This document shows positions 12,263 to 58,325 of a DNA stretch of 64,000 bases, piece by piece. A model generated the notes under the pieces. The model worked only from the letters and a program-made list of their open reading frames with translations. It did not search any database and had not been told where the DNA came from. Origin of the DNA: an uncultured Paraprevotella sp. (GTDB taxonomy: Bacteria > Bacteroidota > Bacteroidia > Bacteroidales > Bacteroidaceae); NCBI GenBank assembly GCA_944321365.1, contig CALULA010000001.1, positions 434,001 through 498,000 of the forward strand. Direction: 5' to 3'. The position numbers and the translations under genes are program-made. The stretch's first letter is position 1. Each line of letters opens with the position of its first letter.

Positions 12263-12358
12263 TTGCGCAAAGCCGTTTCCGTTTGTGCGCAACACCGTCG
12301 ACGCTTTTCCGCAAAGCCGTTTCCGGTCTTGCGCAACACTTCCGGCAGTTTTCCACAA
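12263..12358. repeat. 22-bp-period TTGCGCAA array 1 (five units)
   Basis: Five 8-bp cores start at 12263 TTGCGCAA, 12285 GTGCGCAA, 12307 TTCCGCAA, 12329 TTGCGCAA and 12351 TTCCACAA, each exactly 22 bp after the last with 14-bp linkers. Linkers 1 and 3 share AGCCGTTTCCG. It lies in the 408-bp gap between the helicase and rseC. The rest of the gap (12184-12262 and 12359-12550) shows no gene and no clear terminator. Short open frames on both strands across the array are low-complexity by-products of the repeat. The type is not one I recognise. Confidence 0.9.
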
Positions 12359-19619: not shown

Positions 19620-19715
19620 TTGCGCAAAAAACAGTTTGTCTTTGCGCAAGACTGTTCCGTTCTTTGCGCAACACTTTCGGCAGTCTTGCGCAACACCGGA
19701 ATGCTTTCGCTGCAA
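19620..19715. repeat. 22-bp-period TTGCGCAA array 2 (four perfect cores plus one degenerate)
   Basis: Perfect TTGCGCAA cores start at 19620, 19642, 19664 and 19686, and a decayed CGCTGCAA sits in phase at 19708. Linkers are 14 bp. The linker after the third core (CACTTTCGGCAGTC) is 12/14 identical to linker 4 of array 1 (CACTTCCGGCAGTT), suggesting common descent. It lies between the convergent genes galE and the MBL hydrolase. Confidence 0.92.
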
Positions 19716-29166: not shown

Positions 29167-29262
29167 TTGCGCAAAAGCTTGTCCGTTCTTGCGCAAGACT
29201 TCATCTGTTCTTGCGCAAGATTTTGTCCGTTGTTGCGGAAAACCGTAGCGGCCTTTGTGCAA
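29167..29262. repeat. 22-bp-period TTGCGCAA array 3 (five units)
   Basis: Cores start at 29167, 29189 and 29211 (all TTGCGCAA), 29233 (TTGCGGAA) and 29255 (TTGTGCAA), exactly 22 bp apart. The next in-phase position, 29277 (CCGCGCTT), has decayed. Linkers 1 and 3 share TTGTCCGTT. The array lies between the convergent Fur-family and NUDIX genes and fills most of that gap; no terminator with a T-tract is visible there. Confidence 0.92.
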
Positions 29263-31162: not shown

Positions 31163-31171
31163 CAGCTGGAG

Positions 31172-31242
31172 AGGTTCCCAGCAGATTCGAACTGCTGTGG
31201 ACGGTTTTGCAGACCGCTACCTAACCACTCGGTCAGGGAACC
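31172..31242 (-). tRNA. tRNA-Cys(GCA), copy 2
   Basis: A 71-nt cloverleaf on the minus strand: acceptor GGTTCCC pairs with GGGAACC, the anticodon loop is CTGCAAA (anticodon GCA), the T-loop is TTCGAAT, and the discriminator base is U, as expected for Cys. CCA is not encoded. Identical to the copy 17 bp upstream in transcription order. Confidence 0.96.
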
Positions 31243-31259
31243 ATTGCGCCCTACGGAAG

Positions 31260-31330
31260 AGGTTCCCAGCAGATTCGAACTGCTGTGGACGGTTTTGCAG
31301 ACCGCTACCTAACCACTCGGTCAGGGAACC
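31260..31330 (-). tRNA. tRNA-Cys(GCA), copy 1
   Basis: An identical 71-nt tRNA-Cys, first in the minus-strand transcript, with a -7 box 22 bp upstream. Anticodon GCA, discriminator U, CCA not encoded. Confidence 0.96.
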
Positions 31331-47633: not shown

Positions 47634-47669
47634 TCCCGTATGTGACGTCTTGTCCATACGGGATTTTTT
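47634..47669 (+). terminator. Terminator after the glgB-membrane protein unit
   Basis: A 9-bp stem (47634-47642 with 47655-47663), 12-nt loop, and T6 at 47664-47669. Array 4 begins at the very next base. Confidence 0.85.
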
Positions 47670-47743
47670 GTGCGCACGAACGGAAACGGTTGTGCGCACA
47701 AATGGTTTCGTTCTTGCGCAAGAACAGTTCCTGTTTTCCGCAA
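47670..47743. repeat. 22-bp-period TTGCGCAA array 4 (four units)
   Basis: Cores start at 47670 and 47692 (both GTGCGCAC, still perfect palindromes), 47714 (TTGCGCAA) and 47736 (TTCCGCAA), exactly 22 bp apart. The GTGCGCAC cores change both ends together, preserving dyad symmetry. The rest of the 474-bp gap to the GH43 gene (47744-47940) shows no gene. Confidence 0.9.
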
Positions 47744-54621: not shown

Positions 54622-55039
54622 TTGGAGTGATAATGCCTGTAAAGTCAATGCATGTTTTCCGTGGAGGTCAGCACGGTTATTGCCCTGCCGCAGTTGGCCG
54701 GGAAGTCCGTCGGAGCCATCGGGACGCTTCTGCCCGGACTGCCGTCAGACAAGACCGCGCCTCTGTAACGGTCTGAGATGGACGCCGGTGGGCAGTCTTT
54801 CTATGAACTGTATTCCTGTTCATTCCTGGTCATCCGCTTCGCCTGTCCCCTCCGGCAGAGGATGCCCGTAAACAATATCTTTATGAAGGTGGCTTTCTGC
54901 AGTCTGGCGGAAAGCCACCTTCTGCTGTATGCAGTCCCCAAATACCGTAAAAATGGTAACTTTTTCTATTCTATAGGTTATGGCGGATTGCCGCCGTTGC
55001 CTTAACTTTGCGCCCGTAAACGGAAAAACAGACCAAGAC
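54622..55039 (+). other. 418-bp gap between the GH2 and TonB-receptor genes
   Basis: It holds a 38-codon open frame (54652-54768, MFSVEVSTVIALPQLAG..) with G/C-rich third positions like the upstream operon, which could be a gene remnant, and a 13-bp perfect hairpin (54885-54897 with 54910-54922) with no T-tract. No convincing gene or riboswitch class is seen. Confidence 0.45.
55003..55010 (+). promoter_or_regulatory. -7 box TAACTTTG for the TonB-receptor gene
   Basis: An exact TAnnTTTG 29 bp before the ATG at 55040; it supports that start over an in-frame one at 54980 upstream of the box. Confidence 0.68.
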
Positions 55040-56968
55040 ATGACAGACAGAACGGAAAAACGATGGAGAATGTTGTCGCTGGCGGGACTCGTGCTGCCTC
55101 TTGCGACGGCGGTGGCGCAGACCGACACGGCAGCGGTGGTGCGGGACAGGAGTATGGACGAAGTGGTGGTGACCGGTACGCGCAACGCCACCGACTTGCG
55201 GCAACTGCCGATGACTGTTTCCGTCATAGGGCGGCAACAGTTGGAAGAAAGCCATCAGACCTCCGTGCTGCCCGTGCTGAACCAAATGGTGCCGGGCTTC
55301 TTTTCCGCCTCCCGCGGAATATTGGGATATGGGGTTTCCGGCGGGGCTGCCGGACAGATGTCCATGCGGGGTATAGGCGGACCGGCACAGGACGGACTGC
55401 CCACCACAGGATTGCTGGTGCTCATCGACGGACATCCGCAGTACATGGGCCTGATGGGGCACCCCATAGCCGATGCCTGCCAGACGATGATGGCCGAGCG
55501 GGTGGAGGTGGTGCGCGGTCCGGCTTCCGTGCTCTACGGCTCCAATGCGATGGGAGGAGTGGTCAACATCGTAACGCGGCAGATGAAGCAAGACGGCGTC
55601 CGCACACACTTTAATCTGGCTGGCGGATCATACGGGACACTGCAGGGCGAAGCCACCAACAGCTTCCGCAAGGGGCGTTTCAGCAGTGTGGCAACGGTGT
55701 CTTACGGACGCTCCGACGGGCATCGCCCCGACATGAGTTTCGAGCAGTACGGGGGCTACGCCAAACTGGGTTATGAGCTTACGTCGACCTGGCGGCTCTC
55801 CGGCGACGTAAACGTGACGCACTTCAACGCCGAGAATCCAGGGGCTGTGGACGAACCGTATATCGACAATGACCAGCGCATTACGCGCGGCATGGCCTCG
55901 CTGGCACTGGAAAACCACTACCGCAACACTTCAGGTGCCTTAAGTCTGTTCTACAACTGGGGCAAGCATTGGATTAACGACGGGTACGAGCCGGGCGATG
56001 AGCCGTTGGACTATCGCTTCAAGTCCAATGATGACATGTGGGGCATATCGTGGTATCAGAGCGCACAACTCTTTCGTGGCAACCGTCTGACGGCAGGGGT
56101 CGACTACTTCCATTTCGGCGGAAAGTCGTACAACCAATACACTGACGGCAGACGTGAGATTTCTGCCGACAAGGCTTTGCACGAGATTGCCGGTTATCTC
56201 GATTTCAGGCAGGACGTGTTCTCCTGGGCAACCGTGGACGTGGGCGTCCGCGTAGACCACCATTCGCAGACGGGGACAGAAGCCATACCGCAGGCCGGAC
56301 TGGCCTTCCGTCTGCCCCGTCAGGCTGAAATCAAGCTCCGGGCCAGCAAGGGATTCCGTAATCCCACCATACGTGAGATGTTCATGTTCCCGCCGCAGAA
56401 TCCCGACCTGAAGCCTGAACGGCTGTGGCATTACGAACTGTCGTACGCACAGAGCGTGGCAGATGGCCGGCTGCATTATGAAGCCAGTGCGTTTTATATC
56501 AACGGAGACAATCTGATTATGCGCTTGCCTAATCCCGCCGGAAGCGGTATGCTGAACCAGAACTCCGGACGGATAGAGAACTGGGGAGCCGAGGGGAGTG
56601 TGGACTTCCGCATGACAGACGACTGGGAACTGCATGCCAATTACAGCTGGCTGCACATGGAGCATCCGGTGTTGGCATCACCGGAGCATAAGCTGTACGG
56701 TGGTGCGGTCTTCCACCGTGGCCGCTGGAATGCCGCTACCGGTCTGCAATATGTGAAAGGGCTCTACACGGAGATTATGGTAGCCGGGTCAGGCCGCTAT
56801 ACTACAGAAGATTTTTTGTTGTGGGACGCTCAGGTTGGATGTAATATCACACACGGACTTTCGGCTTACGTGCGGGGAGAGAATCTGTTGGCCCAACGTT
56901 ACGAGATGATGGCGGGCTATCCCATGCCGCGTGCAACGGTTATGGCAGGAGTGAATTTCACTTTCTGA
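55040..56968 (+). CDS. TonB-dependent outer-membrane receptor (BtuB/HmuR-like size)
   Basis: 642 residues with a signal sequence (LSLAGLVLPLATAVAQ). The TonB-box-like MDEVVVTGTRN is at about 35-45, the plug domain has MRGIGG, VLIDGHPQYMG and VEVVRGPASVLYGSNAMGGVVNIVTR, and the barrel ends in VMAGVNFTF. ASKGFRNPTIREMFMFPPQNPDLKPER is the conserved barrel motif of vitamin/heme/siderophore receptors. It is much smaller than SusC-type receptors and has no SusD partner, so a small cofactor or metal complex is more likely than a glycan. No cobalamin riboswitch was recognised upstream. Closed by a terminator. Confidence 0.93.
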   Translation: MTDRTEKRWRMLSLAGLVLPLATAVAQTDTAAVVRDRSMDEVVVTGTRNATDLRQLPMTVSVIGRQQLEESHQTSVLPVLNQMVPGFFSASRGILGYGVSGGAAGQMSMRGIGGPAQDGLPTTGLLVLIDGHPQYMGLMGHPIADACQTMMAERVEVVRGPASVLYGSNAMGGVVNIVTRQMKQDGVRTHFNLAGGSYGTLQGEATNSFRKGRFSSVATVSYGRSDGHRPDMSFEQYGGYAKLGYELTSTWRLSGDVNVTHFNAENPGAVDEPYIDNDQRITRGMASLALENHYRNTSGALSLFYNWGKHWINDGYEPGDEPLDYRFKSNDDMWGISWYQSAQLFRGNRLTAGVDYFHFGGKSYNQYTDGRREISADKALHEIAGYLDFRQDVFSWATVDVGVRVDHHSQTGTEAIPQAGLAFRLPRQAEIKLRASKGFRNPTIREMFMFPPQNPDLKPERLWHYELSYAQSVADGRLHYEASAFYINGDNLIMRLPNPAGSGMLNQNSGRIENWGAEGSVDFRMTDDWELHANYSWLHMEHPVLASPEHKLYGGAVFHRGRWNAATGLQYVKGLYTEIMVAGSGRYTTEDFLLWDAQVGCNITHGLSAYVRGENLLAQRYEMMAGYPMPRATVMAGVNFTF

Positions 56969-56993: not shown

Positions 56994-57044
56994 CTGCTTT
57001 TGCAAGACGCTGTGCATCATGGTCTTGCAAAAGCAGTTTTTTTT
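56994..57044 (+). terminator. Terminator of the TonB-receptor gene
   Basis: A perfect 15-bp stem (56994-57008 with 57022-57036), 13-nt loop, and T8 at 57037-57044. Array 5 starts at 57045. Confidence 0.9.
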
Positions 57045-57118
57045 GTGCGCAAGAACGTCCGCGTCTTTGCGCAAGGCTGACCGCATCTTTGCGCAAAGAA
57101 ATCCGCACTCTTGCGCAA
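57023..57118. repeat. 22-bp-period TTGCGCAA array 5 (four clear cores plus one inside the terminator stem)
   Basis: Cores start at 57045 (GTGCGCAA), 57067, 57089 and 57111 (all TTGCGCAA). The in-phase position 57023 reads TCTTGCAA and forms part of the terminator's right arm. The array ends 16 bp before the stop of the convergent efflux gene. Confidence 0.92.
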
Positions 57119-57134
57119 AGACAGTCCGGACGAG

Positions 57135-58325
57135 TCAGGACGGACGGCATACCGCAGCTTTGCGTCTGTAGAGAGCCAGCCGTGTGCAGCAGTAAGAACA
57201 GAGGGAACCTGTCAGGAAGATGGCTCCCGTCGGAAGCAGTATGTTGCCCAGACCGACGAGCGGCGACACTATGCCGCCTGCGGCAAAGCCCAAAGCCCCC
57301 AACAGTGCGGAAGCTGTTCCGGCGTTGTCACGCTCACACTCAAGTGCCAGTGCGTTGGATGCCGTGAACGTCAGCCCGATCATGCCCAGCAGGCAAATCA
57401 GCAAAACCTCGTAAATCCAGAAACTGCAGTCGGAGGCCAGGGCGATAAACAGGCCGGCAGAGGCAACGAGCATCCCGATGCTGCCATAGTGAAGGGCTTG
57501 TTCCGGATGAGGAAAGCGGGCAGACCATGCAGCCGCCACCACGATGGCAATGGCGTTGATGCCGAAGCAGATGCTGAACTGCATGGGCGAGAAACCGTAG
57601 TGCTGCTGCATGATGAACGGGGCAGACGAGATGTTGGCGAACAATACGCCTTGCGCAAAAGCGAACTGCAGGATGTAGCATACGTAACGGCGGTGGCCCA
57701 ATACGCGGCTGAAACTTTTCAGCACATCGCTCCATCGTGTGTCGGCCCTGCGCTCCGATGGCAGGCTTTCACTGAAACGGACGCTTCCGGCCAGCAGCAG
57801 GATGCCTATGGCAAACAGGCACCAGAAGATGCCTTGCCAGCCCACACTGTCGGCCATAAGGCCTCCGCCGATGGGGGCGGCGATGGGGGCCACGCCGTTG
57901 ATGGCCCCTATCAGGCCCAGCATCTTGGCCAGTTCGTGGCCGGTGTACTTGTCGGCCGCAACGGAGCGTGAGATGACAATGCCTCCGGCACCGGCGATGC
58001 CCTGCACCAGCCGCCAGCCCACAAACTGCATGATGGTCTGCGAGAGGATGCTGCCGACTGTAGCGAACAGGAACAGTGTCATGGCCGCAATGAGCGGCAT
58101 GCGCCGTCCGTATTTGTCGCTCAACGGTCCGAATACCAGTTGTCCGCAGGCCAGGCCTATCATGCTGGAGGTCAGTCCCAGCTGCACGAGCGAAGAAGTG
58201 GTGTGAAAATAGTGGGTCATGGCCGGCAGTGTGGGCAGATACATATCGGTCACGAACGGGCCGAATGCCGACAGCATGCCCAGAAAAATGAGGATGAATG
58301 CGTTTGAGTTGTTTCTTTTTGTCAT
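57135..58325 (-). CDS. Bcr/CflA-type multidrug efflux transporter (MFS)
   Basis: 396 residues with twelve predicted helices. AFGPFVTDMYLPTLPAM near the N-terminus is the Bcr/CflA signature, GPLSDKYGRRMPL is the MFS loop 2-3 motif, and RLVQGIAGAGGIVISRSVAAD is the drug-antiporter motif C region. The start at 58325 (MTKRNNSNAFILIFLGM) agrees with the family; the upstream extension of 118 codons is spurious. Divergent from the AraC regulator, which probably controls it. Confidence 0.93.
   Translation of the reverse strand: MTKRNNSNAFILIFLGMLSAFGPFVTDMYLPTLPAMTHYFHTTSSLVQLGLTSSMIGLACGQLVFGPLSDKYGRRMPLIAAMTLFLFATVGSILSQTIMQFVGWRLVQGIAGAGGIVISRSVAADKYTGHELAKMLGLIGAINGVAPIAAPIGGGLMADSVGWQGIFWCLFAIGILLLAGSVRFSESLPSERRADTRWSDVLKSFSRVLGHRRYVCYILQFAFAQGVLFANISSAPFIMQQHYGFSPMQFSICFGINAIAIVVAAAWSARFPHPEQALHYGSIGMLVASAGLFIALASDCSFWIYEVLLICLLGMIGLTFTASNALALECERDNAGTASALLGALGFAAGGIVSPLVGLGNILLPTGAIFLTGSLCSYCCTRLALYRRKAAVCRPS

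What the first reader, a model, noticed from the sequence alone, without database searches (positions are those of the whole stretch)
56994..57118. Array 5 abuts a terminator and its 22-bp phase continues into the terminator stem
The T8 tract ends at 57044 and the GTGCGCAA core starts at 57045. One period earlier, TCTTGCAA at 57023 forms part of the right stem arm. Two of five arrays being flush with a T-tract hints at insertion directly behind terminators, as some REP-associated and IS elements target, or at a joint terminator-array module.
Basis: partly seen in the sequence, partly recalled or inferred. Interest (0 to 1): 0.7.

Follow-up and report, generated by a model that had tools for sequence, protein, structure and literature searches.

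The report
22-bp palindrome array behind a terminator
The short repeat behind this transcription stop signal is one of an estimated 200 similar arrays in this gut bacterium, all built on an exact 22-base spacing; the arrays are in step with a faint 11/22-base rhythm that runs for kilobases through neighbouring genes, which points to an unknown DNA-organising system rather than to a mobile element that lands behind terminators.

Summary
A strong hairpin (56994-57036) and T8 (57037-57044) run straight into four TTGCGCAA-type cores at exact 22-bp steps (57045-57118). Genome-wide, T-runs are flush with array ends more often than chance: 16/124 outer ends against 5/358 internal flanks (p=1e-6). However, only about 4 of 62 arrays have a true hairpin-plus-T flush, and insertion behind terminators is not supported. 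The phase match into this stem is weak (5/8 at one step, nothing beyond).

What is there is larger. The arrays are palindromic DNA sites without hairpin covariation. They are private to this Paraprevotella species (119 triple-core matches here, none in 392 other Bacteroidales genomes) and sit mostly in convergent or 3' gaps. They are phase-locked to a coherent 10.97/21.95-bp composition rhythm that continues about 3 kb into flanking genes, carried mainly by third codon positions and abolished by synonymous shuffling. Other Bacteroidales also carry intergenic 22-bp arrays with different palindromes (46 at lag 22 against 0-5 at neighbouring lags), and three Prevotellaceae species also show the sharp 11-bp line.

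Best reading: binding-site arrays for a helically phased, probably polymerising DNA-binding protein, placed in untranscribed gaps. The protein was not identified. I found no description in the searched literature.

The parts
54980..56968 (+). TonB-dependent receptor gene whose 3' end the terminator serves
   Evidence: Pfam Plug and TonB barrel
56994..57036 (+). Terminator hairpin: 15-bp arms 56994-57008 and 57022-57036
   Evidence: fold -26.3 kcal/mol
57037..57044 (+). T8 tract, flush with the first array core
   Evidence: d=0
57045..57118 (.). Array 5: four palindromic cores GTGCGCAA/TTGCGCAA at 57045, 57067, 57089 and 57111, exact 22-bp period
57135..58325 (-). MFS transporter gene, convergent with the TonB receptor gene; array lies between the two 3' ends
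   Evidence: Pfam MFS_1
12263..12358 (.). Array 1, same family (5 units)
19620..19693 (.). Array 2, same family (4 perfect cores)
29167..29262 (.). Array 3, same family (5 units)
47670..47743 (.). Array 4, same family; also flush with a terminator T-run ending at 47669
   Evidence: d=0

Best explanation
The array is a row of dimer binding sites for a DNA-binding protein, repeated every 22 bp so that all sites lie on the same face of the helix (two turns). It sits in DNA that is not transcribed, just beyond the terminator and between two convergent genes. Such arrays act as anchors: from them a regular, probably polymerising, nucleoprotein structure extends along the chromosome, and flanking genes have acquired weak in-register matches at silent positions over about 3 kb. 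Shown: the exact pitch, palindromic unit, lack of hairpin covariation, convergent and 3' placement, species-private motif, array-anchored rhythm in genes and its synonymous-site basis. Inferred: that a protein binds, that it polymerises, and that terminator adjacency reflects avoidance of transcription. The flush T-runs are a boundary preference, not a fused terminator-array element.
For: Pitch and unit: core pairs only at lags 22, 44, 66 and 88; extended palindrome YTTGCGCAAR with flanking CG steps. Spacer pairs do not covary (z -1.3), so it is a DNA site rather than an RNA or cruciform hairpin. Placement: 14 of 26 arrays in convergent gaps and 1 in a divergent gap, where 31 of 176 gaps are convergent and 42 divergent. 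Strong terminators before the array 19, after it 4. Lattice: phase continues into genes. Sharp 10.97 and 21.95-bp lines, absent in congeners. Array-anchored coherence 8.7, 7.3 and 4.3 sigma at 0-1, 1-2 and 2-3 kb. Codon position 3 z 10.6 against 3.3 and 3.5. Line power 3.7 with genes intact falls to 1.5 after synonymous shuffling. Generality: intergenic arrays at lag 22 number 46, against 0-5 at lags 19, 20, 23, 25 and 26, in 2.3 Mb of other Bacteroidales, with palindromic units. Three Prevotellaceae with arrays also show a sharp 11-bp line.
Against: No binding protein was found: HU-family counts do not differ between lattice and non-lattice genomes, and there is no archaeal-type histone. In most Bacteroidales, and in S. 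maculosa, motifs differ between loci of one genome, which one sequence-specific protein does not easily explain. Array-array phase agreement between neighbouring arrays is only suggestive (z about 1.3-1.7, n up to 14). T-run flushness is not confined to 3'-facing ends. Genome-wide 11-bp periodicity as such is known in bacteria and has been read as DNA curvature or supercoiling (PMC4132750, PMC3431218).
Confidence: 0.5

Rival explanations
1. The arrays are phased bends that pin supercoil (plectoneme) tips between convergent genes, where positive supercoils meet. No dedicated protein is needed, and the 11-bp rhythm in genes is the known curvature code.
For: Convergent bias; AT/GC alternation near 11 bp in genes; curvature and supercoil readings of 11-bp periodicity in the literature (PMC4132750, PMC6301789).
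Against: The unit is an exact 22-bp GC-centred palindrome rather than an 11-bp A-tract phase. One species-private 8-bp word is kept across all arrays. Coherence reaches kilobases, well beyond the ~100 bp usually reported for curvature signals.
Confidence: 0.2
2. A joint terminator-array module: the T-tract and first core work together in transcription termination, for instance as a protein road-block that secures polymerase release.
For: T5+ flush at 16/124 ends against 5/358 internal flanks; hairpin plus T exactly flush at 131215, 326564, 481670 and 491045 of contig C1, and T-runs running into cores inside arrays at 279379, 312521 and 387001.
Against: Most arrays are not flush. Terminators often end 30-200 bp before the array, and 14 best terminators lie after it. 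Flush T-runs are also seen at 5'-facing ends.
Confidence: 0.12
3. A REP- or MITE-like mobile family that inserts behind terminators.
For: High copy number, extragenic, palindromic, 3'/convergent placement as in REP elements; three longer arrays (L171, L186, L190) share flanking sequence, so some copies were duplicated.
Against: 179 of 179 spacers differ; no Y1 transposase gene; absent from congeners and viral contigs; a copy-paste element would not put in-register silent changes into flanking genes.
Confidence: 0.06
4. An RNA element in 3' UTRs: tandem hairpins that stabilise mRNA ends or terminate on both strands.
For: Adjacent palindromic cores can pair as RNA; placement after stop codons.
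Against: No compensatory changes in spacer pairs; strong terminators mostly lie before the array; the lattice continues into genes on silent sites.
Confidence: 0.05

Closest known systems
Genome-wide ~10-11 bp periodicity of bacterial DNA (PMC3431218, PMC4132750, PMC7537859)
   Same: Period near 11 bp, present in genes, strongest at third codon positions.
   Different: Here the line is sharp, coherent over kilobases, includes a 22-bp component, and is phase-locked to discrete intergenic palindrome arrays. The passages consulted tie the signal to no such anchors and mostly report a signal length of about 100 bp, though PMC7537859 mentions at least a kilobase in E. coli.
REP/BIME extragenic palindromes (PMC2817692, PMC3733652)
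   Same: Many copies, extragenic, palindromic, mainly 3' or convergent (the placement of REPs is from my own knowledge).
   Different: Only an 8-bp core plus flanks is kept on an exact 22-bp grid; no repeated full unit, no RAYT gene, not shared with congeners.
BrickBuilt minisatellite MITE of Porphyromonas gingivalis (PMC4596501)
   Same: Same bacterial order; intergenic tandem repeats with a unit of similar size (23 nt); one element lies behind a Rho-independent terminator.
   Different: 23-nt unit, leader and tail with terminal inverted repeats, 19 related copies; here 22 bp, diverged spacers, no common ends, about 200 loci (extrapolated).
DNA uptake sequences
   Same: A short species-specific word in many copies, known near terminators in some bacteria (own knowledge).
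   Different: Single TTGCGCAA words outside arrays are at chance level (9 found, 11.9 expected in 400 kb); only arrays are enriched.

Membership tests
REP/BIME elements | Copies of one 20-40 bp palindromic unit related by descent | tested here: not met
   179 distinct spacers of 179, modal pairwise identity 5/14
REP/BIME elements | Companion Y1/RAYT transposase in the genome | tested here: not met
   PF01797: 0 matches in own genome, controls ring. Not all REP-bearing genomes have one, so this is supportive only
REP/BIME elements | Extragenic with 3'/convergent placement | tested here: met
MITE (BrickBuilt type) | Terminal inverted repeats and common leader/tail | tested here: not met
   No conserved sequence at outer array ends beyond fading lattice positions
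Intrinsic terminator | GC-containing stem followed by U-tract at gene 3' end | tested here: met
   56994-57044, dG -26.3 kcal/mol; applies to the hairpin, not to the array
CRISPR array | Identical repeats of about 23-55 bp with unique spacers of similar size and cas genes | tested here: not met
   Only an 8-bp core repeated, spacer 14 bp, dispersed over many loci; cas genes not searched
DNA uptake sequence | Over-represented as single dispersed copies | tested here: not met
   9 lone cores against 11.9 expected in 400 kb
11-bp genomic periodicity (structural code) | Period near 11 bp in genes, third codon position dominant | tested here: met
Binding-site array of a nucleoid-associated protein | A cognate protein binds the unit | not testable with these tools
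   No candidate distinguished by HU or histone family searches

The most novel reading that the evidence does not exclude
A sequence-encoded bacterial chromatin: a filament with a 22-bp repeat is nucleated at species-specific palindrome arrays in untranscribed gaps and runs for kilobases through genes. It leaves its ruler in synonymous sites, either by selection for weak sites or as a mutational imprint. The array class is common in Bacteroidales, and its palindrome changes from lineage to lineage while the 22-bp pitch stays fixed.
Probability: 0.35. Interest if true: 0.95.

Novelty: categorically new. Interest (0 to 1): 0.8.

Why it matters
If the arrays anchor a regular nucleoprotein structure, bacterial chromosomes would have a sequence-coded, phase-locked packaging lattice that can be read from silent codon positions. 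The long-debated meaning of the 11-bp rhythm in bacterial genomes would become testable at defined anchor sites. It would also give a genome-wide handle on an unknown DNA-binding protein in abundant gut bacteria, and explain why terminators and repeats sit side by side.

Tried and rejected
RNA or cruciform hairpins between adjacent cores: no covariation. REP/RAYT mobility: no Y1 gene, no copied unit. Uptake sequence: lone cores at chance level. Phage or mobile carriage: no triple-core arrays in viral contigs. Protein-helix explanation of the rhythm: signal is at third codon positions and vanishes on synonymous shuffling. HU paralogue number or a histone fold as the cause: no difference, no hit. 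Direct phase agreement between neighbouring arrays: suggestive only, too few pairs below 9 kb. Lone-core versus array phases: pairs not independent, inconsistent sign, not used. Literature searches for such arrays found none.

Full report
OBSERVATION. The arms are 56994-57008 and 57022-57036, the T-tract 57037-57044, and the cores start at 57045, 57067, 57089 and 57111. The upstream gene encodes a TonB-dependent receptor and the convergent downstream gene an MFS transporter. The nearest named relative found is Paraprevotella xylaniphila (81% identity in the neighbouring beta-galactosidase). The window lies in a 2.74-Mb assembly.

HOW COMMON. Two cores at 22 bp (up to two mismatches) occur at 459 places in this genome, against 1 for the reversed control. 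The first 400 kb of contig C1 hold 30 arrays, so roughly 200 are expected in the genome (extrapolation). Triple cores (up to one mismatch): 119 here, none in 392 other genomes of the order, and at most chance pairs in 17 congeners. None were found in viral contigs.

ANATOMY. Core pairs occur only at lags 22, 44, 66 and 88. The averaged unit is a long palindrome, roughly CG-n4-CG-KTY-TTGCGCAA-RAM-CG. All 179 sampled spacers differ, and bases facing each other across a spacer do not covary (z -1.3). Conservation is therefore that of a DNA site for a symmetric reader, not of a folded strand.

PLACEMENT. In the unbiased sample (C1 1-400000 plus the window), 14 of 26 arrays lie in convergent gaps and 1 in a divergent gap, where 31 of 176 gaps are convergent and 42 divergent. 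A larger sample, enriched for arrays, agrees: 27 of 46 convergent and 7 of 72 divergent gaps hold an array, p = 1.5e-8. The gene finder was my own simple codon model, so gap classes are approximate.

TERMINATORS. A run of at least five T within 2 bp occurs at 16 of 124 outer array ends, against 5 of 358 internal flanks (p = 1e-6). For ends facing a gene 3' end it is 12 of 77, where random placement in the same gap gives 1.0 +/- 1.0. The distance preference is thus real. It is also seen at ends facing gene starts (4 of 37), the difference is not significant, and only about 4 of 62 arrays have a recognisable hairpin with T-run exactly flush. Strong terminators (score at least 30) lie before the array 19 times and after it 4 times. 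I read this as arrays being kept out of transcribed DNA, with the T-run a frequent boundary. In congeners, several orthologous 3' ends have terminators with no array, but neighbourhoods differ, so this says nothing about insertion.

PHASE INTO THE STEM. For this array the -22 position matches 5 of 8 and further positions 1-2 of 8, so taken alone it is a coincidence-level match inside a constrained stem. Over all arrays, however, degenerate cores continue outward at -22, -44, -66 and further.

THE LATTICE. Scored with the unit profile, lattice positions exceed off-lattice positions hundreds of bases away, including inside genes. With arrays removed, genic DNA has excess autocorrelation at every multiple of 22 bp over the codon background; permuted profiles of the same genome also show it, so it is a composition rhythm and not only the exact word. 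The power spectrum has sharp lines at 10.97 and 21.95 bp, present on C1 and on C2-C4, absent in 400 kb from eight congeners. Anchored on arrays, AT content is coherent at 10.975 bp with 8.7, 7.3 and 4.3 sigma in the first, second and third kilobase and not beyond about 5 kb. In genes 150-1000 bp from arrays the AT fraction swings from 0.40 to 0.49 with phase. Random windows of the same genome show weaker coherence, 0.34 against 0.99. The signal is carried by third codon positions (z 10.6 against 3.3 and 3.5). Shuffling synonymous codons within genes drops the line from 3.7 to 1.5, near background.

GENERALITY. In 2.3 Mb of other Bacteroidales I found 46 intergenic arrays at lag 22, against 0-5 at lags 19, 20, 23, 25 and 26. 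Units are more palindromic than shuffled ones (20 of 46 with at least 7 of 11 paired, null 7%) and placement is again convergent-biased (p = 0.004). Motifs differ between species and often between loci. Segatella maculosa, Prevotella sp. oral taxon 376 and a Prevotellaceae MAG show sharp lines at 10.88-11.00 bp over long stretches and 17, 10 and 2 arrays at lag 22 in 140, 140 and 100 kb, with 0-2 at other lags. A 50-kb E. coli stretch shows neither. This is one small control; other phyla were not surveyed.

MECHANISM. Shown: pitch, symmetry, placement, private motif, anchored rhythm at silent sites. Inferred: a protein reads the arrays; sites two helical turns apart favour cooperative binding on one face; extension from arrays explains kilobase coherence; transcribed DNA is avoided. 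Whether silent sites are selected as weak sites or mutated in a protein-dependent pattern is open. The heterogeneity of motifs in most species is the main difficulty for a single sequence-specific binder and leaves room for a structural (curvature or supercoil) reading.

COMPARISON. An 11-bp rhythm with third-position dominance is known (PMC4132750, PMC7537859, PMC3431218). REP elements (PMC2817692, PMC3733652) share placement but fail the copied-unit test. BrickBuilt (PMC4596501) is the nearest tandem repeat in the order but has a 23-nt unit and terminal inverted repeats. Literature searches for 22-bp arrays in this group returned nothing matching. The library is open-access only, so an earlier description cannot be excluded.

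Noticed in passing
L171, L186, L190 (G000 C1:41626, C8:13257, C14:34902): Three longer degenerate arrays share flanking sequence and spacers, with core variants TTCCGCAA and GTCCGCAA in the same 22-bp register; apparently a recently duplicated element.
   Followed up: partly
whole genome, pattern TTTTTTNTGCGCA: 22 sites against 0-1 in the control, 19 on the forward strand and 3 on the reverse strand of the contigs (p about 0.001), most with G before TGCGCA; the strand bias is unexplained.
   Followed up: no
lacZ 3' ends in L094, L095, L123, L102, L131: The same gene end carries a 22-bp array in several Phocaeicola/Bacteroides genomes, with related or different motifs: position kept, sequence drifting.
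   Followed up: partly
G000 C1:1-400000: TTCCGGAA is the second most frequent palindrome of the same composition (34 copies against 50 TTGCGCAA); possibly a second motif.
   Followed up: no
window 31171-31330: Two tRNA-Cys genes in an exact 88-bp tandem duplication.
   Followed up: no
L221 10971-11111 (congener G005): A nearly perfect 22-bp array with a different motif (AATTTACAAGCGGTCGCAGCAA) in a Paraprevotella genome that lacks TTGCGCAA arrays.
   Followed up: partly
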